From positions 1 through 49,781 of the forward strand of contig JAUNSU010000016.1 of assembly GCA_030539035.1 (NCBI GenBank): a stretch of 49,781 nt of DNA. The letters are read 5' to 3'. The notes under the pieces are model-generated. The model had not been told where the DNA came from, ran no database searches, and saw only the letters and a list, made by a program, of their open reading frames with translations. This stretch comes from Planctomycetia bacterium. GTDB lineage: Bacteria; Planctomycetota; Planctomycetia; Pirellulales; Thermoguttaceae. How positions within the stretch are numbered: the first letter of the stretch is position 1; each line of letters opens with the position of its first letter. Made by a program: the position numbers and the translations under genes. Positions 20,730 to 42,690 of this stretch are shown piece after piece.

Positions 20730-23700
20730 ATGAAATTTTCGAAAATCCTGTTTGTTCTTTCTGCATTTGGGATATTCGGTATTCTTTTTTCCTTCTCTTC
20801 TTTGGAAGGAAAGGAATTTCATGTTGCCCTGAACGGACATGATCAGGGATCCGGATCCGCGGAAGATCCGTTTGCGACTCTTTTTAAAGCGCAGGACGCG
20901 GTTCGGGAATTCAAAAAGAAAGATCTGAAAGAACCGGTCGAAGTTGTTGTTCATGAAGGAATTTATTATCTTTCAAAGCGTCTGATCTTTACTCCGAATG
21001 ATTCCGGAACAAAAGAGTTCCCGATCATTTGGCGGTCCGCGAAAGGCGAAAAAGCGATTCTCAGCGGCGGATTTCCAATTACCGGCTGGAAGAAGGCTGG
21101 TGATCATCTCTATACGGCTTCTCTTTCAGAGAAGATCGGTCCGGAACCCTTTCCAAGAGAGGATGGTAAAGGACTTTCCTCCGATCAGCTGACTCAAATG
21201 TTTGTGAACGGACGGCGTGCGATCCCTGCTCGAACACCCAATGAAGGAATGTATTTTTATACTCGCGATCTCACTGCTCCGGCTCCGGCCCTGAAATGTC
21301 TGGGCTTTTATTATCAAGAGAAAGATGCGGGAAAATGGATCGACGATCCGAATACGCAAATCGTTCTTTATTACAACTGGAGCAATTCACACAACCGGAT
21401 CCTGTCTGTCGATAAAAAGAAAAATTATATTGAATTCAAACGGCCCGGCGGCCAATACTTTCTTGGCCCGGAAATTCGATATTATATCACCGGCAGTTTA
21501 TCCGCATTGGATGCGCCGGGAGAATGGTTCTGCGATTTCGCCGGAAAAACCGTTTATTATTATCCGCTGCCGGATGAAGATCTTTCGCAAGCACAAACGA
21601 TCATTACAAGAATCGATTCTCCGATCGTATTGATCAACGGATCAAAAAAGGGAGATCATCCGGCAGAATATCTCATCTTTAAAGATCTTTGCATTGAACA
21701 TTCCAACGCGAATTTGGGTCCGGATTATCCGCACAGTGTTCAAGGCGCTCATACCCAGTTCGGCGCGCTTACCGCCTATGGAATGGAGCACGTCCGCATC
21801 GAAAATTGTGAGTTTGCCCATCTTGGAGAACATGGAATTTCCCTGCTTGAAGGATGCCGTGATAATACGGTTTTTCAGTCCCATATTCATGATTTGGGCG
21901 GCGGCGGAGTTTATCTTTCCTGCGGATCTCCTGCTTCAAGTGATCCCAAGTCGCATACAGTGAATAATACCATAGAAAATAATATCATTCATGATGGGGG
22001 ATATCTTTACGCGGCGGGATGCGGAATATTCCTCGGCGGAAGCGCCTCTTATAATAAACTGCTCCATAATGAAATATTGGATTTCAGCTGGGACGGAATT
22101 CATGCCGGATGGAGCTGGACCGGTCTTGTAAAAGCGCATACTCATCATAATGAGATCGCATACAATCACATTCATCATATCTGCAACGGTGTTTTAAATG
22201 ATGCGGGAGGAATTTATATGCTGGGGGTTTCTTCCGGAACCGACGTTCATCATCAGCGAATCCATGATGTTTGGCGCTTTACCAGAGGAACGGAAGGATA
22301 CGGCGGCTGGGGGATCTATTTCGACGCCGGAAGTTCGGAAATCCATGTTCATGAGAATATCGTTTCCGATACCCAGGACGGCGGGCTTCATTTGCATTTT
22401 TATTCCAGTCCCTATGGAAATATTATCGATAATAATATCTTTGCTTTCGCGAAAAACGGCGAATTGATGCGCAATGCCGATATGCCCTCCAAAAAAGGAC
22501 TTCACGCGATCTTGTCAAAAAATATTATTTATGAAAACGGTTCCTTTGTTTATTGCGGAGAAAACTGGAATAAAGGATCCCTGTTCCAAACCGATTACAA
22601 CTGTTTTTGGACAGGAGATTTGAACGGTCCCGCTTTTTATCGGAAATCTTTTGCGGATTGGCAAAAAGAGGGCAATGATCAGCACAGCCTTCTTGCCGAC
22701 CCATTGTTTGTCGATCCCGATCAAAGAGATTTTCGCCTTAAACCGGATTCGCCCGCTTTAAAACTTGGATTCAAACCGATCGATTCTTCTCAAATCGGCG
22801 TTTACGGAGACGCAAAGTGGAAGGATCTCGCAAAAAGTTTTCCGGGCCGATCCATCGAACGGGCAATCGCGCCTCCGATCATTTCCCGATATTGGGATGA
22901 TTTCGAAGATTACAAGCCGGGAGAGAAACCGAAAATTCTTACCCTATATGAAGAAAATGATAAAGCGATCATTCGTGTTTCCGAGGAAGCGGGATCTGCG
23001 CCCGATTTGAATTCCAGCGTCAATTCCCAAGCAGGCCGGCGATCTCTCAAAGTTCAGGATGCTCCTGGGCAAAAATATGCGCACGATCCGCACGTTGTTT
23101 ATTATAAATTGTTTCCGGAAGGGAATATTCATAATTCCTTTGATTTAAAATTCCAGGAAGGGGCTCCTGTTAATTATGAATGGCGTGATTGGCGGGGAAC
23201 TCCTTATCAGCCGGGTCCGCACTTCACGATCAATCAGAGCGGGAATTTATCGGTCGACGGTAAGATCTTGGCGGATCTTCCCGCGGATCAATGGATTCAT
23301 TTTGATGTGCGATGCAAAACCGGTTCGCAAAGGAATAATATCTGGTCCCTGAAAATTACGATTCCGCACAAACAGCCTTTGATTTTTGATCACTTGCCGC
23401 TTGGTATAAATTTTGAACGGCTTAATTATCTTGGGTTCATTTCCATTGGAGAAAAAGAGAAAGCGTTTTATATCGATAATCTTTTGATCGAGCTGGAAGA
23501 TCAGACCGCAGATGGAATTTCCCGCATCAGCAGCGGGCTTAATTATGATGTTTACTCAATTCAGAATGGCTTGATTGACTTTTCCGAAGATCTGTTTGAT
23601 CCTTCGATCAAAAAAGATCTGCGTCGACTTGCGCCAAAAGGATCCGCACCGGGTTCCTATAATTCATTTCTGATCTATTGCGGAAAGCGTCCGGTCCTTA

Positions 23701-24290
23701 TCGACGCCTGCTGCCAAAAAAAGGACGGATCGCTCTTGAAAAAGATTCTCTCCCTTGGACTTGCTCCGAAAGAAATCGCGGCTGTTCTCCTTACCCATGC
23801 GCATGATGATCATGTTTACGGCTTGCTTGATTCTGATGATAAGGCCGTTTTTCCCGCCGCCGAGATTTATCTCTGTGATCTGGAAAAAGCGCATTGGGAA
23901 AAATTCGCAGGAAAGAATTCCATGATCCGCAAGGTGTTCAAGGCTTATGAAGGGCGAATCCGAACGTATAAATACGGAGATACAATTTTTGAGAATATCA
24001 AGTGCCTGGACGCGTCCGGACATGCGCCGGGACAGACTGTTTTCGCGGTTGAAGATGTCTGCTTTACAGGAGATCTTATTCACGCGGCCCAATATCAGTT
24101 TTCATTGCCCGGCGCCTGTACGATCTATGATCGGGACAAACCGAAAACCGCTGCGGCCCGATTTCGCTGTTTGAACGAAATCGCCAAATCGGGTACCCTT
24201 CTTTTTGGAGCGCATGTTCTGTTTCCCGGCGCGGGCTATCTCGAAAAGAACGGAGAGGGATTTCGATTTATTCCGTTCGAAAAACGATAA
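20730..24290 (+). CDS. Secreted fusion of right-handed beta-helix, lectin-like and metallo-beta-lactamase domains
   Basis: The product is 1186 residues in one uninterrupted frame. A signal peptide (about 1-27) is followed by EFHVALNGHDQGSGSAEDPFAT, the opening of secreted beta-helix enzymes. Residues about 190-690 carry many PbH1 coils (VRIENCEFAHLGEHGI, NTIENNIIHDGGYLYAAG, AYNHIHHICNGV). Residues about 710-930 look like a concanavalin-type lectin/LamG fold (YWDDFEDYKPGEKP, ending in AFYIDNLLIEL). Residues about 945-1186 are a complete MBL-fold hydrolase: T1022-HAHDDH with His1023, His1025, Asp1027 and His1028, then His1098 (SGHAPGQ), Asp1115 (FTGDLIH) and His1162 (GAHVLFPG). All zinc ligands are present, so the hydrolase is probably active outside the cytoplasm. 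I know of no described enzyme with this order. The beta-helix part resembles glycan lyases or glycosidases, but its substrate is unknown. AAGGA precedes the start. Confidence 0.85.
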   Translation: MKFSKILFVLSAFGIFGILFSFSSLEGKEFHVALNGHDQGSGSAEDPFATLFKAQDAVREFKKKDLKEPVEVVVHEGIYYLSKRLIFTPNDSGTKEFPIIWRSAKGEKAILSGGFPITGWKKAGDHLYTASLSEKIGPEPFPREDGKGLSSDQLTQMFVNGRRAIPARTPNEGMYFYTRDLTAPAPALKCLGFYYQEKDAGKWIDDPNTQIVLYYNWSNSHNRILSVDKKKNYIEFKRPGGQYFLGPEIRYYITGSLSALDAPGEWFCDFAGKTVYYYPLPDEDLSQAQTIITRIDSPIVLINGSKKGDHPAEYLIFKDLCIEHSNANLGPDYPHSVQGAHTQFGALTAYGMEHVRIENCEFAHLGEHGISLLEGCRDNTVFQSHIHDLGGGGVYLSCGSPASSDPKSHTVNNTIENNIIHDGGYLYAAGCGIFLGGSASYNKLLHNEILDFSWDGIHAGWSWTGLVKAHTHHNEIAYNHIHHICNGVLNDAGGIYMLGVSSGTDVHHQRIHDVWRFTRGTEGYGGWGIYFDAGSSEIHVHENIVSDTQDGGLHLHFYSSPYGNIIDNNIFAFAKNGELMRNADMPSKKGLHAILSKNIIYENGSFVYCGENWNKGSLFQTDYNCFWTGDLNGPAFYRKSFADWQKEGNDQHSLLADPLFVDPDQRDFRLKPDSPALKLGFKPIDSSQIGVYGDAKWKDLAKSFPGRSIERAIAPPIISRYWDDFEDYKPGEKPKILTLYEENDKAIIRVSEEAGSAPDLNSSVNSQAGRRSLKVQDAPGQKYAHDPHVVYYKLFPEGNIHNSFDLKFQEGAPVNYEWRDWRGTPYQPGPHFTINQSGNLSVDGKILADLPADQWIHFDVRCKTGSQRNNIWSLKITIPHKQPLIFDHLPLGINFERLNYLGFISIGEKEKAFYIDNLLIELEDQTADGISRISSGLNYDVYSIQNGLIDFSEDLFDPSIKKDLRRLAPKGSAPGSYNSFLIYCGKRPVLIDACCQKKDGSLLKKILSLGLAPKEIAAVLLTHAHDDHVYGLLDSDDKAVFPAAEIYLCDLEKAHWEKFAGKNSMIRKVFKAYEGRIRTYKYGDTIFENIKCLDASGHAPGQTVFAVEDVCFTGDLIHAAQYQFSLPGACTIYDRDKPKTAAARFRCLNEIAKSGTLLFGAHVLFPGAGYLEKNGEGFRFIPFEKR

Positions 24291-24370: not shown

Positions 24371-26530
24371 ATGAAATGGACCTTGATTATTTTGATGGGA
24401 CTCGCTTTTCTCGGATCGGCGCAGATCAGTTCCGCGCAGGATTCCCGAACATTGATCGAACCGGGAAAAACGGATCTCGCCGCAAATAAAATCCGTTTGG
24501 AAAACCGGGGATGCGATTCCCGGGTGAATACGGTAAATGGGATCGCTTTTTATGCCGTTCAAACGAAAGATACATATGCTTGGCCCGGCATTACGTTTTA
24601 TGGAGAATGGAATCTCGATCCGTTTAAGGAAATCGCTGTTGATGTCGAAAATGCGGATAAGGACCGCACCTTGAATCTCTCTCTGCGGGCGGATGATATC
24701 AACACGAACAAAAGTCAATATTGGCTTACCAAGGGCGATACTCTCGCGCCGGGAGAGCGAAAAACGATCACGCTTCGATTCCCGAATAATGTCCCTGCTT
24801 ATGTTCGGAGCAAAGTGTTCGGAATGCGGGGATTGCCGGGCAATATTCAGGCCAATTACAATACGGGAAAGGCCAGCGACGGACAAAAAGGATTTCAGCG
24901 GAATCAATGCCGGGCGATCTATGTCTTTACTTCCAAAAAAGAGAAACCAATCCAGTTTAATATCTATAAGATCGAAGCGAAAGCAATTCCCGGACAGGGA
25001 GATCTCGACAAATGGATTCATCTTTCCGAATTGGAATTCTTTCCCATGGTCGATCGATTCGGTCAATTCAAACATTCCGATTGGCCCGGCAAGGTCCATT
25101 CGGAAAAAGATCTGAAGGAGAATATCGCAAAAGAGAAAGCGGATTGCGATGAACATCCCCGTCCGGTCCAATGGGATCAATACGGCGGCTGGAAAAATGG
25201 TCCGAAGCTCAACGCGACCGGACATTTTCGCGTCGAAAAGTATAATGGAAAGTGGTGGTTCGTCGATCCCGAAGGACATCTCTTCTGGTCCCATGGAACC
25301 GACTGTGTAAGGGAAAACAGTTCCACCGCGATTTCCGATCGGGAATATCTTTATGAGGATCTTCCTTCCGAAGATTCCCCATTTAAGGTCTTTTATGGAA
25401 AAGGACGGAATGCGGCGCATGGATATTATGCGAATCGATCTTTCAATACCTATGATCTTGGCGGCGCCAACCTGCTCCGAAAATACGGGAAAAACTGGAA
25501 AGAGATCTCTTGGAATATCGCGCACAAACGCCTTCAGTCCTGGGGAATGAATACGATCGCGAACTGGTCCGATCCGAATATTTACCGTTTGCGTAAAACA
25601 CCATTTACGATTAATGTGAACACCGGATCGCCCCGTATTGAAGGATCGAAAGGCTTTTGGGGAAAATTCCCCGATCCTTTTCATCCCGCGTTCCGGCAAG
25701 CGGTCGCCGATGGATTGAACAAAAATCACAAATCCGAACTTGATGATCCCTGGTGTCTTGGGATCTTCGTTAATAATGAACTCTCTTGGGGAAACGACGG
25801 AACTTCTCTGAGTGAAGGCGCTCTTCTTTCTCCAAAAGATCAGCCGGCAAAAATCGCGTTTGTAAAAGAACTCAAGGAAAAATACAAATCGATCGATGCC
25901 CTGAACGGCGCATGGTCGTCGAAGTATTCTTCCTGGGACGATCTGCAGATCAATACGGAGGAAGCGAAAGATCCCGAAAAGAAATCGAAAAGCAGAAAAG
26001 AGGATCTTGAAGCGTTCTATTCCCAAATTGCGAATCAGTATTTCAGGGTGATTCATGAAGAGATCAAAAAAGCGGCTCCGAATACTCTTGATCTTGGCTG
26101 CCGATTTGCCTGGTGCAATGATCGGGCCGTGATCGAATCCGCGAAATATGTCGATATCATCAGCTTTAATAAATACTTGTATTCCGTCGCCGATTTTAAA
26201 CTTCCGAACGAGATCGATATGCCTTGTATTATCGGAGAATTTCATTTCGGCGCTTTGGATCGGGGAATGTTCCACACAGGCCTGAAGGCGACTAAAGATC
26301 AAAATGATCGGGCGCAAAAGTACGATGATTATGTCCGCGGTGCTCTTACTCATCCTCTTTGGGTCGGAACACACTGGTTCAAATATCAGGATCAGCCGAT
26401 CACCGGCCGCGCGGACGGTGAAAATTATCAGATCGGCTTGATCGATATTTGCGATACTCCGTATCCGGAAACCATCGCGGTCCTTCGCGCCATCGGAAAA
26501 GAGATGTATGATCTGAGAATGGGGAAATAA
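24371..26530 (+). CDS. Secreted GH50-like (agarase/beta-galactosidase-type) glycoside hydrolase
   Basis: The product is 719 residues with a signal peptide (MKWTLIILMGLAFLGSAQISSA). An N-terminal beta-sandwich-like part (to about 210) precedes a clan GH-A barrel that begins near NGKWWFVDPEGHLFWSHGTD. The likely acid/base is Glu470 in FVNNELSWG and the likely nucleophile is Glu623 in IIGEFHFG; both stand at strand ends as in GH-A enzymes. GMNTIANWSD and WWFVDPEGH recall GH50 exo-beta-agarases and related beta-galactosidases. GH42-like or an undefined family is possible. AAGGAG lies about 9 bases upstream of the ATG. It follows the beta-helix/MBL fusion by 80 bases, so both are probably cotranscribed and act on one external glycan. 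Confidence 0.7.
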   Translation: MKWTLIILMGLAFLGSAQISSAQDSRTLIEPGKTDLAANKIRLENRGCDSRVNTVNGIAFYAVQTKDTYAWPGITFYGEWNLDPFKEIAVDVENADKDRTLNLSLRADDINTNKSQYWLTKGDTLAPGERKTITLRFPNNVPAYVRSKVFGMRGLPGNIQANYNTGKASDGQKGFQRNQCRAIYVFTSKKEKPIQFNIYKIEAKAIPGQGDLDKWIHLSELEFFPMVDRFGQFKHSDWPGKVHSEKDLKENIAKEKADCDEHPRPVQWDQYGGWKNGPKLNATGHFRVEKYNGKWWFVDPEGHLFWSHGTDCVRENSSTAISDREYLYEDLPSEDSPFKVFYGKGRNAAHGYYANRSFNTYDLGGANLLRKYGKNWKEISWNIAHKRLQSWGMNTIANWSDPNIYRLRKTPFTINVNTGSPRIEGSKGFWGKFPDPFHPAFRQAVADGLNKNHKSELDDPWCLGIFVNNELSWGNDGTSLSEGALLSPKDQPAKIAFVKELKEKYKSIDALNGAWSSKYSSWDDLQINTEEAKDPEKKSKSRKEDLEAFYSQIANQYFRVIHEEIKKAAPNTLDLGCRFAWCNDRAVIESAKYVDIISFNKYLYSVADFKLPNEIDMPCIIGEFHFGALDRGMFHTGLKATKDQNDRAQKYDDYVRGALTHPLWVGTHWFKYQDQPITGRADGENYQIGLIDICDTPYPETIAVLRAIGKEMYDLRMGK

Positions 26531-26532
26531 AG

Positions 26533-29499
26533 ATGCAAGCTCCGCAAATCATTAAAGATCTGGTTTATAAATTTAAACAAAATCTTGAACAATATAAATC
26601 GAATCAGTACAAAGAGACAGAGACCCGGGTCCATTTTCTCAATCCATTTTGGGAAGCACTTGGCTGGGATATCCAGAACAGGGCCGGGAAATCCTTGGAG
26701 GACTGTGATGTTGTTCATGAAGATTCAATAAAAACAGAGGCCCGTGATCAAGATTTGATTATGCGGGCTCCGGATTATGCGTTCCGTGTTGGCGGAATTC
26801 GCAAATTCTTTCTGGAAGCCAAAAGACCCCTTGTCAATATAAAGATGGGGACAACGCCCGCCTATCAGCTTCGCAGCTATGGGTGGTCCTGTAAGCTTTT
26901 TTTATCTGTTCTTTCCGATTTTGAGGAGTTTGCGGTCTATGATTGTCGATTTCAGCCATTTGCAACGGATAGCGCGTCGACGGCTCGAATCCAATACTTG
27001 CAATATACGGATTATGTTGATCATTGGGAGGAAATTGCCGATCTTTTTCATCGTGATCGTGTTTGGAACGGCAGTATTGAGCAATTTGCAGAATCGAAAA
27101 ATTCGAAAAAAGGAACTTCGGAAGTTGATGCTGTTTTTTTGAAAGAGATCGAACAATGGCGGGAAATACTGGCAAAGGATCTTGCAAAAAATAATCCGGA
27201 ACTTTCTGTCCAAGATCTCAATTATGCGGTTCAGATTACGATCGATCGTATTTTGTTTTTGCGAATGGCGGAAAGCCGGGGGATCGAACCGGAAGATCAG
27301 TTGAAGAACTTGATCGACAGTGCGAATATTTATCAAAATCTGTGCAGAATCTACCACCGGGCTGATGAAAAATATAATTCCGGGTTTTTCCATTTTGAAA
27401 GCGAAGAAGACCAGCCGGAAAAACCGGATACATTAACGCTGGGGTTGTCCTTTTCGAATAAGTCGTTTCATGATATTTTTAAGCGGCTCTATTTTCCTTT
27501 ATCTCCTTATCGCTTTGACGTGCTTCCTGTTGAAATTTTAGGAAATGTTTATGAGCAATTTTTGGGGAAGGTGATTCGGTTGACTCCGACACGGCAGGTA
27601 AAAGTCGAAGAAAAACCGGAAGTACGCAAGGCGGGCGGTGTTTACTACACGCCCGGATACATCGTGGATTCTGTTGTGGAAAACACGGTCGGAAGATTGT
27701 GCGATGGTAAAACCCCCGCCGAGGTTGCCAAACTCAAAATTATCGATCCTGCCTGCGGAAGCGGATCTTTTTTGCTGGGGGCTTATCAGTATCTGAAAAA
27801 ATGGCATTTAAACTATTATATTGATCTTTATAAAAGAACGGGAAAAATTCCGAAAGTTCCGAAAAATCATGATGAGGAAGATCATATTGATTTGCAATAT
27901 CGGCGAAAGAAAAGAAAAAAATCCGAAAGGTCTCCGTATGTGATTATTGAAATATCAAAAAACAACTGGATTCTTTCGCAGGCGGAAAAACGTCGAATTC
28001 TGCTCAACAATATTTTTGGGGTCGATATTGATGCGCAGGCGGTTGAGGTAACAAAACTGTCCCTGTCGCTTGCCGTTCTGGAAGGAGCTCATCTTGAGTC
28101 CCTTGATTGTGAACGCCGCCTCTTTTATGAACGGGCCCTTCCAAATCTTGCTTTGAATATTCGCTGCGGAAATTCGTTGGTCGCCCCCGACTTTTATCAA
28201 AAAAATCCCATTCTTTTTGCTGATTTCGATGAACAGTTGCGAATCAATGCTTTTGATTGGACCGATAGAGATCTCGGCTTTGGAAAAATTATGGATCAAG
28301 GCGGCTTTGACGCGGTTATCGGAAATCCGCCCTGGGGACAGAAAGAATGTAAATTCAGTACTGAAGAAAAACGGTATTTTGAAATTCATTATCCAACCGC
28401 TTCTGTCGGAATTCTTGATTTCTTTCGTTTGTTTGTTGAAAAATCCATTTCCCTTTTGAATTCAACTGGCGTTTGGGGACAGGTCTTACCGGACATCGTT
28501 CTGCTTAAAGATTATGAATCGACTCGATCTTATATCTTGAATCATATCCATTTACAGAACATCAATCATTGGGGAACTGCTTTTGCGAAAGTGAATATGG
28601 ATGCTTGTACTCTCATCGGAACAAAAAGCAAATTCAGAAAAAGAATACGTATTTCAGTTTTTCAAAATGGTAATAAGGTTGTAAATAATGAATTATCACA
28701 AAGCGTATTTGCACAATTGCCGGACTGTAAATTTAATCTGTTTTTGACGAATGAATCCTGGAAACTGATCTCAAAATTAAACGGCCTTCAAAAATTCTCC
28801 GAATTCTTTCAAACACATGAAGGAATCCATTCCGGTAATGTGAGGAGCAAGCTCTTTGTGGACAGTCCATTAAATGAAAACTGCAAAAAACTGATATTTG
28901 GCCGTGATGAAGTCAAAAGATATTTTTTGAATTGGAAAGGGAAATGGGTCCATTATTCAAAGAGCTATTTTAAAAAAAATGATTATGCGGGGCTTGGAAA
29001 ACCGGAGTATTTTGAGACCCCCAAGTTAATCATTCGCAGAACAGGTGATTATATTTTAGCCTGTCTGGATGAGGAAAAATACTATTTCAGCAATAATTTA
29101 TTTGTTTGTATTCCGAACGATTCGAAAGTCAATTTGCTGTTTTATCTTGGAATACTCAATTCCCGATTATTGTCCTGGTATTATCGAACAATGCAGCCCC
29201 GAGTTGGAAGAGCCTTTGCGGAAATCAAAATCAATTTAATAAACGACTTGCCTGTTCCCAATATGGACCTTCATAATCCGAAATGCTCAAAGTGCCGAGA
29301 TGAACTGATTGAAAGTGTTGAGAGAATTCTGTTTTTGAACAGAAAACTGAATGTGATTTCAAACGGCGGATCCGCTCTGCAGAATCGTATTGTTCTGGAA
29401 CGGCAGATTACAGCACTTGATCATCATATTGACGATCTGGTTTATGATCTGTACGATTTATCGGAAGAAGAACGAAAAATGGTCAACAGCTCCTCGTGA
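26533..29499 (+). CDS. Type IIG restriction-modification enzyme (nuclease plus N6-adenine methyltransferase in one chain)
   Basis: The product is 988 residues. The N-terminal nuclease shows Pro80-Asp81 and Glu95-Ala-Lys97 (PDYAF ... FLEAKRP), a PD-(D/E)xK site. A helical linker follows. The gamma-class methyltransferase has motif I DPACGSGSFLLGAY (from Asp405), the NIFGVDIDAQAVEV segment and motif IV NPPW at 598-601. The C-terminal third, with SPLNENCKKLIFGRDEVKRY, SYFKKND and LGILNSRLLSWYYR, resembles the TaqI-type target-recognition domain. Such enzymes cut and methylate without a separate subunit. The start lies 2 bases after the glycosidase stop with no clear ribosome site, so translation probably reinitiates. 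The gene is richer in A+T and has far fewer GATC sites than its neighbours, which points to recent acquisition. Its target sequence cannot be read. Confidence 0.9.
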   Translation: MQAPQIIKDLVYKFKQNLEQYKSNQYKETETRVHFLNPFWEALGWDIQNRAGKSLEDCDVVHEDSIKTEARDQDLIMRAPDYAFRVGGIRKFFLEAKRPLVNIKMGTTPAYQLRSYGWSCKLFLSVLSDFEEFAVYDCRFQPFATDSASTARIQYLQYTDYVDHWEEIADLFHRDRVWNGSIEQFAESKNSKKGTSEVDAVFLKEIEQWREILAKDLAKNNPELSVQDLNYAVQITIDRILFLRMAESRGIEPEDQLKNLIDSANIYQNLCRIYHRADEKYNSGFFHFESEEDQPEKPDTLTLGLSFSNKSFHDIFKRLYFPLSPYRFDVLPVEILGNVYEQFLGKVIRLTPTRQVKVEEKPEVRKAGGVYYTPGYIVDSVVENTVGRLCDGKTPAEVAKLKIIDPACGSGSFLLGAYQYLKKWHLNYYIDLYKRTGKIPKVPKNHDEEDHIDLQYRRKKRKKSERSPYVIIEISKNNWILSQAEKRRILLNNIFGVDIDAQAVEVTKLSLSLAVLEGAHLESLDCERRLFYERALPNLALNIRCGNSLVAPDFYQKNPILFADFDEQLRINAFDWTDRDLGFGKIMDQGGFDAVIGNPPWGQKECKFSTEEKRYFEIHYPTASVGILDFFRLFVEKSISLLNSTGVWGQVLPDIVLLKDYESTRSYILNHIHLQNINHWGTAFAKVNMDACTLIGTKSKFRKRIRISVFQNGNKVVNNELSQSVFAQLPDCKFNLFLTNESWKLISKLNGLQKFSEFFQTHEGIHSGNVRSKLFVDSPLNENCKKLIFGRDEVKRYFLNWKGKWVHYSKSYFKKNDYAGLGKPEYFETPKLIIRRTGDYILACLDEEKYYFSNNLFVCIPNDSKVNLLFYLGILNSRLLSWYYRTMQPRVGRAFAEIKINLINDLPVPNMDLHNPKCSKCRDELIESVERILFLNRKLNVISNGGSALQNRIVLERQITALDHHIDDLVYDLYDLSEEERKMVNSSS

Positions 29500-36787: not shown

Positions 36788-38065
36788 CTATAAGCTTTTC
36801 TTTGATCGGAAAGGTCCGAATACCGCTTTGATCTTCATGCTTTCATCTTCGGCAACGAGATGGAAAATCTTGTATTGACGGCCTCCGTCGAAAACGCGAA
36901 GGACAACATGTCCATAAGCCGGTTTAAGAAATTTTTGCCAGCTTTTATCCTTGTTTTCATCCATTTGTTTTTGAGAGACCCATGTGGGAGAGACAATCCG
37001 GTCCCCCTGATAAAGGGAGGAATCGGTCATGTTGATCATGGTATTGTCCTGAAGATGCCCGCGATCCCATACATTTGTGATATAAACATGGGCTTGAACC
37101 TCTTTTGTGAAGTCCGGCCGCATTGCGTCTTTATAGGAATGGTGATTGGTTTTGCAGACATCGACGATCCCCGCCGCTTTGCCCACCGCGCCTTCGAGCA
37201 GATATCCTTCGCAATCTTTACTTTTCGCGTCGCCGCTGATATCGCCGCCGGTAAAGTATCGGAAAGGTCCGAAGTCGATCGTAAAGCCGATGCTCATCGC
37301 GTTTTCCCTGTACTTTTTGAATTCAGGATCCGCGAAGAAATCGGCGTTTTTTCCTTCTTCTCCGGTCCAAACGATTCCGTTCGCACAGATGTTCCGTGTA
37401 TGGAAATCGGGCCAGGCACTTTTATTTTTGCGAAGAACGATCTGATCTTTTTTTCCAACGAGGAATTCTTCCATTCGAAAATCGCCGTTTTTTACCTTCC
37501 ATTCGGTAAACTTTCTGAAGTTCATGAAATCGTCCGCGTCTTTGGCTGTTCGTTCATAATGCGGATATCCGCGATCATATACGGTATCGATAGAAAAGAT
37601 CTCGCCGAGGTTTGCAAGTCCGCTTAAACAGTAATCCGGAGTCCGTCCTGTCGTTTTTCTCGCATGAATTTGGCTGGATCCCGCGTGATCGCTGTGATAA
37701 TGGGAAAGCATCATATAATCGATCTTTTTGCCCGCCGGATTGACGCGCTGTATGTATCGGGCAATCCATTCACTCGGAAGCCGGGATTTGTCCGGAAGAA
37801 CCGGAAACTGATCCTCCTGATTCGATAAACGGTCGGAGGAATCCAGAATCATGGATGTTCCATCCGGAAAGATCAAAAACATATTTTCCCCGACGCCAGT
37901 ATAGATATAATGAATATCCATTTCTCCCTCTTTCCAGGCGGAAAGAGGTTTGCCAATTTCATCTCCGTTTTCTTTTGCGGAGAGTGATCCCAACGAACCG
38001 GCGATCATGAGCGATCCGGCGGACAGGGAACATTTCATAAATTCGCGTCGATTGTTTTTTCGCAT
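36788..38065 (-). CDS. Tat-exported metallo-beta-lactamase-fold hydrolase
   Basis: The product is 425 residues from ATG at 38065, with AAGGA about 7 bases upstream. The N terminus has a twin-arginine motif (NNRREFMK) and a hydrophobic stretch (SAGSLMIAGSLGSLSA), so it is folded in the cytoplasm and exported. The MBL core follows: VGENMFLIFPDGTSMILDSSD, His122-x-His124-x-Asp126-His127 in SHYHSDHAG, an Asp in TGGDISGD, and histidines in KTNHHSYKDAM and QAHVYITN. The layout is nearest to the ComEC/competence-like branch, not classical beta-lactamases. The substrate is unknown. The gene lies 48 bases downstream of a secreted beta-helix gene on the same strand. Confidence 0.8.
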   Translation of the reverse strand: MRKNNRREFMKCSLSAGSLMIAGSLGSLSAKENGDEIGKPLSAWKEGEMDIHYIYTGVGENMFLIFPDGTSMILDSSDRLSNQEDQFPVLPDKSRLPSEWIARYIQRVNPAGKKIDYMMLSHYHSDHAGSSQIHARKTTGRTPDYCLSGLANLGEIFSIDTVYDRGYPHYERTAKDADDFMNFRKFTEWKVKNGDFRMEEFLVGKKDQIVLRKNKSAWPDFHTRNICANGIVWTGEEGKNADFFADPEFKKYRENAMSIGFTIDFGPFRYFTGGDISGDAKSKDCEGYLLEGAVGKAAGIVDVCKTNHHSYKDAMRPDFTKEVQAHVYITNVWDRGHLQDNTMINMTDSSLYQGDRIVSPTWVSQKQMDENKDKSWQKFLKPAYGHVVLRVFDGGRQYKIFHLVAEDESMKIKAVFGPFRSKKSL

Positions 38066-38113
38066 TTTATTTTCCTTTCTTGAATTACTCAAAGACAGCG
38101 GATTGGGAAAGAA

Positions 38114-39904
38114 TTATTTTTTTTCATATTTTTTGATGAATCCGGTTTTTTCCATTCCGAGTTCATCGGCGATTTTTTTCAGTTCATCTTTTTGATAATA
38201 GTCTTTTATGAGCCAGCGGAAAAGCGGTTTTTCCGATTGATAATACTGATTTCCTTCAAGGGTCAATCCGGGCCGCCAATCATTATCCATTCGGACACAT
38301 ACTTCGGTGGATTCGCTGAAAACATTATTTCGGATCACGAAATTTTTGGTTTCCGCCTTATTGCCGTAGAACATGAGATGAGCTCCATTCGGATCCGGCC
38401 GTTGATCATGAGCCCATCCGAATCCGGCGTCCAGGCAGATATTATCTTCGAAAAGGATATTTTCCGTAATTCCGCGATTCCAGTATTCGAACGAGTATTC
38501 GGAATTCCAGATCAGATTTTTTCGATAGGTTGTATTGAGTTCATTATCATATCGTCCCTGATTGGTAAGAGCGGCATCATAGACTTCCCAAAGGCGGTTT
38601 TCTTCAACGAGATTTCCATCGCAATTTCCCCAGAATTCGATTCCGTTTCCGAATCGGACAGGTTTTCCATCCGGACGGGTAAACTGATGCCCTCCGCCAA
38701 TGTAATAGATATCGCATTTTCGGATCGTAATTCGTTTGGTCGATCCGCCGCCGAATCCGTGCGCCGCTCCATAAGCGACCGCAAGATTTTCGTAGATAAT
38801 ATCATGTCGATTGTTCTCTTCGATAATATGTTTTCTTAAAGCGAGTTCGATCGAATCCAGTTCTTTGCCCGGATTACCGTCGAATCGGAGATAAACCAGT
38901 TGATCATTCGCATTATACCAGTAGTCGCCCGGCTTTTTGCAATCTTCCAGCTTCCATTTTTTGATCCCGCACCGGTGCAGTTTTGTATAATTTCCATGAT
39001 TGAAGATGATGTTTCCGACATCGCAGGAGAGTATTTTGGACGGATCCAAAGAGGCCGCGCGGACATCAAGGATCTCAAATTCCAGCGTGCAGTCCGACGG
39101 CATTCCGCCAAGCGCGAGATGATAGCAAAGAGCCGCCTTTTCTTCCTCTTTTTTCATGCTCATTTTGTTGATAAGGAAGATCTTGTTTTCTTTCCATTCG
39201 GGCGTGATTTCGGTTGTTCCCGGCGCAAAATAAAAAACATCCCAGGGAGAATTCGATTTTTGAATGGTCAAGCTGCTCATTGGGAACGGTTTGGAACATC
39301 GGGCGCGGAAAACGATCTGAATCCCCGATTCCGGAAGATCACCGGAAACCGACGGTCCCCAGATCTGAAGGTGATTCGATTTTGTTCCGGAAGTTTTGCA
39401 TTTCAGTTTGAACCCGTTTTCTGTCCGCGAGAAAGTACTTTGTGCGCCGTTTTCTTCATGCCGGCTCCACGCCCCGTTCCCCTGAACGGAGCTGTTTCCT
39501 TTTGTATTCCAATTGAATTTTTCTCCGACAACAGGTTCGATTTTTTTTGTTGACCAGATCCCCGGTTGAACTTCGGTCCAGTCTTCGGGATTCGATGCGT
39601 CGGCCGATCCGTAGAGCTTGGGAAGTTCGCCTTCTCCATAGGCTCCGTAATAGACGGGATTTCCTTCTGCTCCGCTGTGGGGAAGAAGAGTTCCCCGCCA
39701 AAGTCCGCCCCGGGCAAAAAGGATCTTGTCGCCCGGCTTCATTTCCGTCGAGTTGACTTTTTTCAGAGATTTCCAAGCGGTGTGCGGGGCTGTTCCTTTG
39801 TTCTTATCCGATCCGGATTCACTGTTGACGTAATACGTTGCCGCCAAACCGGGGGTCGAACAGGCGAACAGAAGAAAAAGGATTAACGATAATTTCGTTT
39901 TCAT
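38114..39904 (-). CDS. Secreted right-handed parallel beta-helix protein, probable polysaccharide lyase or glycosidase
   Basis: The product is 596 residues with a signal peptide (MKTKLSLILFLLFACSTPGLA; the Cys could be a lipobox but fits it poorly). TYYVNSESGSDKNKGTAPHTAWKSLKKVN is the usual opening of this class. A beta-sandwich-like insert (about 130-280, with STFSRTENGFKLKCKTSG) precedes the PbH1 coils (about 355-560: HDIIYENLAVAYG, ITIRKCDIYYIGG, VEENRLWEVYDAAL, FVIRNNVFSEST). The insert may be a carbohydrate-binding module. No catalytic residues are assigned. It lies between the MFS transporter gene and the Tat-exported MBL gene on the same strand. Confidence 0.8.
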   Translation of the reverse strand: MKTKLSLILFLLFACSTPGLAATYYVNSESGSDKNKGTAPHTAWKSLKKVNSTEMKPGDKILFARGGLWRGTLLPHSGAEGNPVYYGAYGEGELPKLYGSADASNPEDWTEVQPGIWSTKKIEPVVGEKFNWNTKGNSSVQGNGAWSRHEENGAQSTFSRTENGFKLKCKTSGTKSNHLQIWGPSVSGDLPESGIQIVFRARCSKPFPMSSLTIQKSNSPWDVFYFAPGTTEITPEWKENKIFLINKMSMKKEEEKAALCYHLALGGMPSDCTLEFEILDVRAASLDPSKILSCDVGNIIFNHGNYTKLHRCGIKKWKLEDCKKPGDYWYNANDQLVYLRFDGNPGKELDSIELALRKHIIEENNRHDIIYENLAVAYGAAHGFGGGSTKRITIRKCDIYYIGGGHQFTRPDGKPVRFGNGIEFWGNCDGNLVEENRLWEVYDAALTNQGRYDNELNTTYRKNLIWNSEYSFEYWNRGITENILFEDNICLDAGFGWAHDQRPDPNGAHLMFYGNKAETKNFVIRNNVFSESTEVCVRMDNDWRPGLTLEGNQYYQSEKPLFRWLIKDYYQKDELKKIADELGMEKTGFIKKYEKK

Positions 39905-40003
39905 GATTTACTTTCCAAAAATACAGGATTTTGATGATATGATCCGGCTGATTTGCGATCGCGCCGGATCGAACATTTTACTTCGATCAAGAATGAGATC
40001 GGA

Positions 40004-41719
40004 TTATTCCGGAAGCGGTTTTCCTTTCGTTTCCGGAAGGAACCAGATGATCAGTATTCCGAGCAGGAAGATCGGGCAAAGCGATGCGCCCGCGTATCGG
40101 ATCGGTTCGGAAAATCCGTTTGCTTCCGTAAAGATATAAGCGGTAAGGCCGCCGAAAAGACCTGGTCCAACCGCGGCGATATATCGGCCGACATTATAGC
40201 AGAAAGAGACCGATGTACTCCGCAGACGGGTCGGGAAGAGCTCCGGAAAATAGATCGTAAAGCCTCCCATCAAAGAGACCAGTGAAAAGCCCATTAAAGG
40301 AACGAATACAAGGACTTTCCACAAACAATCCATCAGGAGAAAGACCGCAAGAGTCGTGATCATTGAGGAGATCAAAAAGATCGTAAAGGTTGGCCGGCGT
40401 CCGATTCGGTTCGTAATGATCGTAAAGGAAAAGATCCCGAAAAAACCGCCGATATTGATCAGAACGGAGGTTAAACTCCCCCATCGGCCAACGACCAGAT
40501 CGTATTCCTTCTTTTGCTCTGTTAATTGACCGATCAACTGAGCGGAATCGCTTTTTGACGCGGAATCGCTCTTCGCGGCGGATCCGGAAAGCCAGCGGCT
40601 CCAATCTTCTTTTTCCAATGCGAGCGGCTTTTTTTCCTGATGATTTTTCTGAAGTGTTTTAAAAATCGCGCTTCCATTGATTCCGGAGGAAGCGGGATCG
40701 GCTGGAAGGGACATGAAATAATCCGAGGTGATCTCTTTTTCGAAAACCTGATTCGCGAATTGCGGATCCGCGATCATTCGGCCAAGAAATTCTTTCTCGA
40801 CGGCAATATTTCTACTCTGGTTGGCAAGTTCGGAAGATTTTCGGAAAACGGATCGATTCAGATCAATCGCAAAGAGCATGATTCCCCAGAAGCCGATAAC
40901 GCCGACCATCGCGAGCATCATTCCGAGGATTACCCGTTTGCGGATCTGCGGATCGGTAAAAAGTTCGACAATGGATCCGCTTTTTCGGCCTCCCTCTTTT
41001 TCTTCCGCTTTTGCCTTTTTCCAGGCTTCCGGTTCGTCCATGTATCGAACGAAAAAAACGAGCAGAACCGGAAGAATCCCAACGACGAAAGACCATCGCC
41101 AGGTACTCCAGCTGCCCGGCAGCATTTCCAGTTCGATCAGTTCGCCGATTCCGAGCGTAATAAAGGCGGCCGCGATATTGCCGAAAGCGGAAATCGCCTG
41201 CAAAAAGCCGAGGGCGTAAGCTCGCGCTTCGGTCGGCATGCTTTCTGCGACGATGGTCGCGCAGACCGCGAATTGACCTCCTACTCCCAATCCGGTTAAA
41301 AAGCGAAGGATCAAAAATTCGGGAACGTTCCGCGCGAATCCGGTCAACCCGGTAAAGCCCGCGTAAAGCAGAATAGTCCAGAACATGGTCCGTACTCTTC
41401 CGTACTTATCTCCGCAGATCCCGAAGATGATCCCGCCTGTCGCCCAGCCGATCAGCATAAGGCTGGTCGCGTATCCCGCGTAAGTCGATACATGGGGATC
41501 CCGTTCCGAGATCCTGAGAAGTTCCGCGATCGCGGGACTTCGAGAAAGCGCAAAAAGCTGCTGATCCAGGCAATCGAATGTCCAGCCCATTGTGCAGAGG
41601 ATCAATACAAACCAGTGATACCAGCTCAATTGCCGATACCAGGGAAGTTTACTGCCGGACACCGATCCTGAATTGGGTGGATTCGGAACGGTATTTTCTT
41701 TTTTCGGACTCGTTTCCAT
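40004..41719 (-). CDS. MFS transporter with a large loop insert
   Basis: The product is 571 residues, longer than the usual 400-450. A soluble N terminus (to about 33) is followed by six helices, the MFS motif GDKYGRVR at about 104, a cytoplasmic loop and the second bundle. Between helices 7 and 8 (about 288-400) sits a hydrophilic, mainly helical insert (e.g. EKEFLGRMIADPQFANQVF and DWSRWLSGSAAKSDS), predicted on the periplasmic side. The sequence resembles the sugar/carboxylate-proton symporter group. Context (nagB, beta-helix and MBL genes on the same strand) suggests uptake of a sugar or sugar acid released outside. GGAG lies 6 bases before the ATG. Confidence 0.85.
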   Translation of the reverse strand: METSPKKENTVPNPPNSGSVSGSKLPWYRQLSWYHWFVLILCTMGWTFDCLDQQLFALSRSPAIAELLRISERDPHVSTYAGYATSLMLIGWATGGIIFGICGDKYGRVRTMFWTILLYAGFTGLTGFARNVPEFLILRFLTGLGVGGQFAVCATIVAESMPTEARAYALGFLQAISAFGNIAAAFITLGIGELIELEMLPGSWSTWRWSFVVGILPVLLVFFVRYMDEPEAWKKAKAEEKEGGRKSGSIVELFTDPQIRKRVILGMMLAMVGVIGFWGIMLFAIDLNRSVFRKSSELANQSRNIAVEKEFLGRMIADPQFANQVFEKEITSDYFMSLPADPASSGINGSAIFKTLQKNHQEKKPLALEKEDWSRWLSGSAAKSDSASKSDSAQLIGQLTEQKKEYDLVVGRWGSLTSVLINIGGFFGIFSFTIITNRIGRRPTFTIFLISSMITTLAVFLLMDCLWKVLVFVPLMGFSLVSLMGGFTIYFPELFPTRLRSTSVSFCYNVGRYIAAVGPGLFGGLTAYIFTEANGFSEPIRYAGASLCPIFLLGILIIWFLPETKGKPLPE

Positions 41720-41857
41720 TTTCTTCTCCGAAAGAAATGTGATTTCTTTGCCGTTTATAAATTTGTCGTTTTTATAAAATTAAAGGAAGGATTTAATGTG
41801 TTCTGTATGCACGATTTTCGAAAACGGACAGAATTCGATCCCGAGAAGAATCGGGTA

Positions 41858-42625
41858 TTACCAATTTCCGCTTTCCGCGTCGAGATACATCGTTGCGTTG
41901 GGATGTTCTCTTAAAATGGCAGCGGGACATTTTGTTGAGATCGGCGAATACACCGTATTATACACGGCGTTCTTTTTTCTTTGACCGGGAACAGTGCAGA
42001 TCAGTGTTCCTCCGGCCATTAAAGTTGGAATGGTAAGTGTAATCGCCTGTTTGGGAACATCATCAAGGGTCGGAAAACAGCCGTCGTGAACCTGCTGCAT
42101 TCGGCAAACATTGTCGAGATCGACAATTTTTACCGCTTTGGGATCATGGAAATCGGCGACAGGCGGATCGTTGAACGCGATATGTCCGTTTTCTCCGATT
42201 CCCATGCAAACGACATCAACCGGTTTTTCCCGAATGATTCGATCATATCTTTCGCAAAGCTGTTCCGGGCTCAAGGATCCGTCTCCTTCATCGAGCAAAA
42301 AGATCTTTTTAAAAGGAAGAAGATCAAAGCAATGATCTTTAAGATACTGAGAAAAACGGGCAGATGATCCGAGAGGAAGTCCGATATATTCATCCATGTG
42401 CAGCGCGATTACTTTCGACCAGTCGATTCCTTTTTCCTGAACAAGCGCGGCGAGAGTATCATCCTGCGAGGGCGCAGCGGCAAAAATCACACGCGCTTCT
42501 CCATTTTTCTGAATCGCTTTTCGAATCGCTTCTCCGGCATCTTTTCCCGCCTGATCGCCCATCGCCTTTCGGCTGGAAAATTTCATTATCCGAAGATTAC
42601 CTGCCTGGATTGTATTTTGGCCCAT
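41858..42625 (-). CDS. nagB: Glucosamine-6-phosphate deaminase
   Basis: The product is 255 residues from ATG at 42625, with AAGGGG just upstream; a longer in-frame start at 42667 is not needed. NagB converts glucosamine-6-phosphate to fructose-6-phosphate and ammonia in the cytoplasm. Family blocks seen are FAAAPSQDDTLAAL, the catalytic HMDEYIGL and GIGENGHIAFNDPP with the active-site His, and TLTIPTLMAGG. 6-phosphogluconolactonase is a relative but lacks the HMDEY block. It is first in the minus-strand set nagB, MFS, beta-helix, MBL and has a good promoter, so the set probably handles an amino-sugar-containing glycan. Confidence 0.9.
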   Translation of the reverse strand: MGQNTIQAGNLRIMKFSSRKAMGDQAGKDAGEAIRKAIQKNGEARVIFAAAPSQDDTLAALVQEKGIDWSKVIALHMDEYIGLPLGSSARFSQYLKDHCFDLLPFKKIFLLDEGDGSLSPEQLCERYDRIIREKPVDVVCMGIGENGHIAFNDPPVADFHDPKAVKIVDLDNVCRMQQVHDGCFPTLDDVPKQAITLTIPTLMAGGTLICTVPGQRKKNAVYNTVYSPISTKCPAAILREHPNATMYLDAESGNW

Positions 42626-42690
42626 ATCCCCTTCCTTTCTGTTCTGCTCTCTGTTTATCCAATTCATGAAAGAATCCGGCTATTCCGTAT

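What the first reader, a model, noticed from the sequence alone, without database searches (positions are those of the whole stretch)
20730..24290. One secreted chain joins a beta-helix, a lectin-like domain and a complete MBL hydrolase
The sequence shows one 3.56-kb frame with a signal peptide, PbH1 coils, a lectin-like segment and an MBL domain with every expected zinc ligand (His1023, His1025, Asp1027, His1028, His1098, Asp1115, His1162). From known families, beta-helix enzymes act on polysaccharides and MBL-fold enzymes hydrolyse esters, lactones, thioesters or phosphoesters. I infer a two-step enzyme in which the helix binds or cleaves a glycan and the MBL domain removes or opens a product group. 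I do not know this architecture from the literature.
Basis: partly seen in the sequence, partly recalled or inferred. Interest (0 to 1): 0.8.

Follow-up and report, generated by a model that had tools for sequence, protein, structure and literature searches.

The report
Secreted glycosidase fused to zinc hydrolase
One bacterial gene encodes a single, probably exported protein that joins a sugar-chain-cutting enzyme (GH141-like) to a complete zinc lactonase/esterase; both halves belong to known families, and the join, which looks real, was seen in only one of more than 700 related genomes.

Summary
Observation confirmed. The beta-helix half (29-700) is GH141-like: it matches BT_1002 (5mqp, 2e-33) and 9rx2 (3.5e-48) and keeps both BT1002 catalytic aspartates (D491, D532; 31 of 31 homologues). 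The middle segment (712-922) is a conserved accessory domain; "lectin-like" could not be shown. The MBL half (926-1186) belongs to the LrsL/AidC/MPH/dihydrocoumarin-hydrolase group.

But the join fits the whole first protein to the mature part of a same-genus MBL (its signal peptide missing), in frame, with matching codon usage. I read it as a real, lineage-restricted fusion; assembly chimera about 6%. That both modules act on one glycan is inference; LrsL's AHL-binding phenylalanines are missing. New variant of a known kind, moderate interest.

The parts
20730..20813 (+). Signal-peptide-like N-terminus, about residues 1-28
   Evidence: Sequence by eye: lysine, then hydrophobic run; no predictor available
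20814..22829 (+). GH141-like right-handed beta-helix half, about residues 29-700
   Evidence: PDB 9rx2 3.5e-48, 5mqp (BT_1002) 2e-33; Pfam Beta_helix 4.2e-14, DUF5123 1.9e-4; family profile finds the same two structures
21339..21566 (+). GH141 insertion-domain match, residues 204-279
   Evidence: PF21231 E 1.7e-5, 25.2 bits against cut-off 27
22200..22202 (+). D491, equivalent of BT1002 nucleophile D523
   Evidence: Alignment; D in 31 of 31; role from PMC10154630
22323..22325 (+). D532, equivalent of BT1002 acid/base D564
   Evidence: Alignment; D in 31 of 31; role from PMC10154630
22863..23495 (+). Conserved accessory domain, fold unassigned, residues 712-922
   Evidence: Alignment A1; found in 16 of 392 phylum genomes; no Pfam/PDB match
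23496..23504 (+). Junction, about residues 923-925
   Evidence: Homologues of the first half stop 0-6 residues past ~921; same-genus MBL aligns from its residue 28 to residue 927 here
23505..24290 (+). MBL lactonase/esterase-type half, residues 926-1186 and stop
   Evidence: PDB 7y7u (LrsL) 1.2e-28, 5hif 1.8e-27, MPH 1p9e 2.8e-22; profile 5hif 7.6e-68
23796..23813 (+). HxHxDH: H1023, H1025, D1027, H1028
   Evidence: equals LrsL H151, H153, D155, H156
24021..24023 (+). Zinc ligand H1098
   Evidence: equals LrsL H236
24072..24083 (+). Zinc ligand D1115 and substrate-side H1118
   Evidence: equal LrsL D257 and H260
24213..24215 (+). Zinc ligand H1162
   Evidence: equals LrsL H304
24371..26530 (+). 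Neighbour gene, beta-agarase-like, same strand, 80 bases downstream
   Evidence: PDB 4bq2 beta-agarase 2.2e-98

Best explanation
A genuine, lineage-restricted gene fusion. A GH141-like glycosidase with its usual C-terminal accessory domain has been joined end to end to the mature part of a dinuclear-zinc lactonase/esterase of the LrsL/AidC/MPH group. Shown by sequence: the single frame, homology of both halves, both sets of catalytic residues, exact domain borders. Inferred: the protein is exported; the beta-helix cleaves a glycosidic bond using D491 and D532; a zinc-bound hydroxide in the MBL half hydrolyses an ester or lactone, with H1118 near the carbonyl oxygen. Most likely the fusion keeps the esterase/lactonase next to the glycan that the glycosidase attacks, so that it removes a blocking ester or opens a lactone on the same material.
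For: One open frame. First half: 9rx2 and 5mqp matches, D491 and D532 invariant, aligned to residues essential in BT1002. MBL half: group membership, complete LrsL ligand set plus H1118. Junction: first-half homologues end 0-6 residues past ~921 in 18 of 19 full-length cases; same-genus MBL aligns from just after its signal-like segment; no in-frame ATG/GTG near the junction. Fused MBL groups with the same-genus stand-alone MBL, support 91/90. Codon usage and GC3 alike on both sides. Polysaccharide context: beta-agarase-like next gene.
Against: One genome only among more than 700 searched. No direct evidence of activity or of a shared substrate. MBL half lies on a long branch and its DTGxG loop reads DACCQ, so loss or change of function is possible. 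The same MBL family is fused to a peroxidase-like domain elsewhere, so a glycan role is not implied by the family.
Confidence: 0.45

Rival explanations
1. Real fusion, but the MBL half is a lactonase for signals or foreign lactones/aryl esters; the glycosidase and accessory domain mainly hold it in extracellular glycan or biofilm matrix.
For: Best single solved match is the AHL lactonase LrsL; group also holds AidC, MPH and dihydrocoumarin hydrolases. Catalytic set complete.
Against: Of LrsL's three AHL-tail phenylalanines, F197 and F200 lie in a stretch missing here and F275 aligns with Y1133. AidB equivalog score 101 against cut-off 360.
Confidence: 0.22
2. Real fusion, but the MBL half is a passenger or is losing function; the protein works as a GH141-like glycosidase like its unfused relatives.
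For: Long branch, altered DTGxG loop, no second genome with the fusion, other C-terminal additions on the same scaffold.
Against: All seven ligands and H1118 kept; codon usage like neighbours.
Confidence: 0.2
3. The first half is a glycan-binding or inactive helix and the MBL half is the only enzyme.
For: CAZy membership of the first half could not be tested; GH141_M match is below cut-off.
Against: Both catalytic aspartates invariant in 31 of 31.
Confidence: 0.07
4. Assembly chimera: two unrelated genes joined in a draft metagenome-type assembly.
For: Draft of 250 contigs; in all other genomes searched the halves are separate.
Against: The join is in frame, falls on both domain borders and lacks the MBL signal peptide, start codon and intergenic DNA; own genome holds no second copy of the MBL half; composition does not change.
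Confidence: 0.06

Closest known systems
GH141 glycoside hydrolases (BT1002 fucosidase, Xyn141E xylanase, Wf141 endo-fucanases)
   Same: Beta-helix fold by homology, insertion-domain match, both catalytic aspartates
   Different: Low overall similarity to BT1002, GH141_M below cut-off; those enzymes carry no MBL domain
PDB 9rx2 'parallel beta-helix repeat protein'
   Same: Best solved match of the whole first half, 26-691 (3.5e-48)
   Different: 717-aa chain without MBL; no paper found for it
LrsL / AidC / methyl parathion hydrolase / dihydrocoumarin hydrolase group of MBL enzymes
   Same: Complete dinuclear zinc ligand set and H1118
   Different: Those are separate proteins; two AHL-tail phenylalanines absent, third is Tyr
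Unfused relatives of the first half (L033, L034 and others)
   Same: Same first ~921 residues and domain order, up to 46% identity
   Different: They end there, or carry a further non-MBL domain (L065, L072, L073)

Membership tests
GH141 | Both BT1002 catalytic aspartates (D523, D564) | tested here: met
   D491 and D532; roles
GH141 | Significant sequence match to a characterised member | tested here: met
   5mqp (BT_1002) 2e-33
GH141 | Pfam GH141_M above curated cut-off | tested here: not met
   25.2 bits against 27; insertion domain only, so filed as GH141-like, not as a member
GH141 | CAZy/dbCAN assignment | not testable with these tools
   No CAZy library available
GH141 | Glycosidase activity | not testable with these tools
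   Needs assay
MBL lactonase/MPH group | HxHxDH ~ H ~ D ~ H zinc ligands | tested here: met
MBL lactonase/MPH group | Sequence/profile match over the whole domain | tested here: met
AidB AHL lactonase (NF047979) | Score above curated cut-off | tested here: not met
   101 bits against 360
LrsL-like AHL lactonase | Three AHL-tail phenylalanines F197, F200, F275 | tested here: not met
   Two in a missing stretch, third is Y1133
Lectin / carbohydrate-binding domain (residues 712-922) | Profile or fold match to a lectin or carbohydrate-binding family | tested here: inconclusive
   No significant Pfam or PDB match; models unusable

The most novel reading that the evidence does not exclude
A bicatalytic exported enzyme in which a GH141-type glycosidase and a zinc lactonase/esterase act in sequence on one glycan, giving the LrsL/MPH group of MBL hydrolases a glycan-linked role.
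Probability: 0.3. Interest if true: 0.6.

Novelty: new variant of a known kind. Interest (0 to 1): 0.38.

Why it matters
The natural substrates of many lactonase/MPH-type MBL enzymes are unknown (own knowledge). A natural fusion to a glycosidase is a direct clue: if the MBL half acts on esters or lactones of the glycan that the GH141-like half cuts, it links this enzyme group to polysaccharide breakdown and gives a testable substrate class. Text searches returned no paper describing the architecture, within an open-licence library only.

Tried and rejected
Structure prediction of the full protein (three-sequence alignment) and of the accessory domain alone gave mean pLDDT 39.9 and 33.7, so no fold search was run. 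Profile searches of the accessory domain gave nothing significant; an E 0.8 match to a xylanase module was treated as chance. Regions around topA in three same-genus genomes showed no beta-helix/MBL pair beside topA. In the fetched stretches none of the homologous MBLs lay beside a beta-helix homologue. Genome-contig and viral-contig scans gave only distant relatives. The other MBL in the window, 36788-38092, was considered as a relative and rejected (best match E 0.11). A lost stop codon between neighbours was rejected because the MBL signal peptide is absent.

Full report
What is there. Window 20730-24290(+) is a single open frame of 1186 aa from ATG to stop. The N-terminus looks like a Sec signal peptide by eye. 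Pfam finds Beta_helix (350-484), a sub-threshold GH141 insertion domain (204-279), sub-threshold DUF5123 (566-697) and Lactamase_B (974-1120).

The first half. By sequence the beta-helix matches two solved structures, 9rx2 ('parallel beta-helix repeat protein', 3.5e-48) and BT_1002 (5mqp, 2e-33); a family profile finds only these two at E 1e-4 or better. BT1002 is the founding GH141 enzyme, whose D523 and D564 are essential (PMC10154630, PMC12786026, PMC5593877). In the printed alignment D491 and D532 fall on chain positions 528 and 569, which I take to be D523 and D564 because both are shifted by the same 5 residues. Both are D in 31 of 31 aligned homologues. GH141 includes an RG-II fucosidase, a xylanase and endo-fucanases, so the substrate cannot be read from the family.

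The middle domain. Residues 712-922 form a conserved unit, attached to the same beta-helix in many related genomes; 16 of 392 genomes sampled across the phylum hold it. Its fold is unassigned: no significant Pfam or PDB profile match, and unusable structure models. 'Lectin-like' is therefore a guess; a beta-sandwich seems plausible from the sequence pattern, no more.

The MBL half. Residues 926-1186 match the LrsL/AidC/MPH/dihydrocoumarin-hydrolase group. The ligand set equals LrsL's H151xH153xD155H156 ~ H236 ~ D257 ~ H304, and LrsL's H260, near the lactone oxygen, corresponds to H1118 (PMC9441902). It is not an AidB equivalog (101 bits against 360). Of the three LrsL phenylalanines that hold the AHL tail, two lie in a stretch missing here and one aligns with Y1133, so an AHL substrate is not favoured. 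The loop that reads DTGxG in most relatives reads DACCQ here.

Is the fusion real? Searches of 147 relatives, 119 family members, 392 phylum and 396 order genomes (overlapping sets; handles reach at least G753, hence more than 700 genomes) found no other frame joining the two halves. Many are drafts, so absence is not absolute. The largest other open frame holding this MBL was 597 aa. Homologues of the first half stop 0-6 residues past ~921 in 18 of 19 full-length cases, as does a paralogue in the same genome (L003); the exception, L039, carries a further domain. The stand-alone MBL of a same-genus genome (L010) aligns from its residue 28, after its signal-like segment, to residue 927 here, and the two group together with support 91/90, though on long branches. 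So the join is whole first protein plus mature second protein, in frame, with about three residues between. A missing stop codon would have left the signal peptide in place; a random chimera would rarely hit both borders. Codon usage and GC3 are alike on both sides. No ATG or GTG lies in frame near the junction. I put chimera at 6%.

How it may work. The chain is probably exported. The GH141-like module would cleave a glycosidic bond through D491 and D532, and the MBL module would hydrolyse an ester or lactone with a zinc-bound hydroxide. The next gene, 80 bases downstream on the same strand, is beta-agarase-like (2.2e-98), which fits a polysaccharide setting. That both modules act on one glycan is inference. 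Rivals are a tethered lactonase for signals or foreign lactones, and a passenger fusion. The scaffold accepts other C-terminal additions (L065, L072, L073), and the same MBL family is joined to a peroxidase-like domain in several relatives, so both partners are prone to fusion.

Source. The genome is a draft of 4.25 Mb in 250 contigs, unnamed here. DUF1559 pseudopilin-like genes suggest Planctomycetota to me; this was not tested.

Verdict. Observation confirmed; interpretation partly supported; a new domain architecture made of known families, known from one genome.

Noticed in passing
L068:2344-3732, L070:7115-8590, L071:1104-2459: The same MBL family is followed in one frame by what reads by eye as a glutathione-peroxidase-like domain; other open frames of 464-514 aa in the family may be similar.
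   Followed up: no
window 36788-42667 (-): A second, unrelated MBL protein (36788-38092, twin-arginine-like leader by eye) lies next to a beta-helix protein (38114-39904), an MFS transporter and a glucosamine-6-phosphate isomerase/6-phosphogluconolactonase-like gene: an unfused beta-helix plus MBL pair.
   Followed up: partly
L065:1533-4884, L072:6184-9708, L073:4087-7614: Relatives of the first half carry a further C-terminal domain, LamG-like by eye, where this protein carries the MBL.
   Followed up: partly
L003:2-2137 (G000:C182): A paralogue in the same genome appears to hold two copies of the accessory domain and ends without an MBL.
   Followed up: no
L107:2-1756: A contig in the viral collection encodes a close beta-helix relative (38%) cut at the contig end.
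   Followed up: no
window 26533-29499 (+): Eco57I-type restriction-modification methylase with a TaqI-like specificity domain, directly after the agarase-like gene.
   Followed up: no
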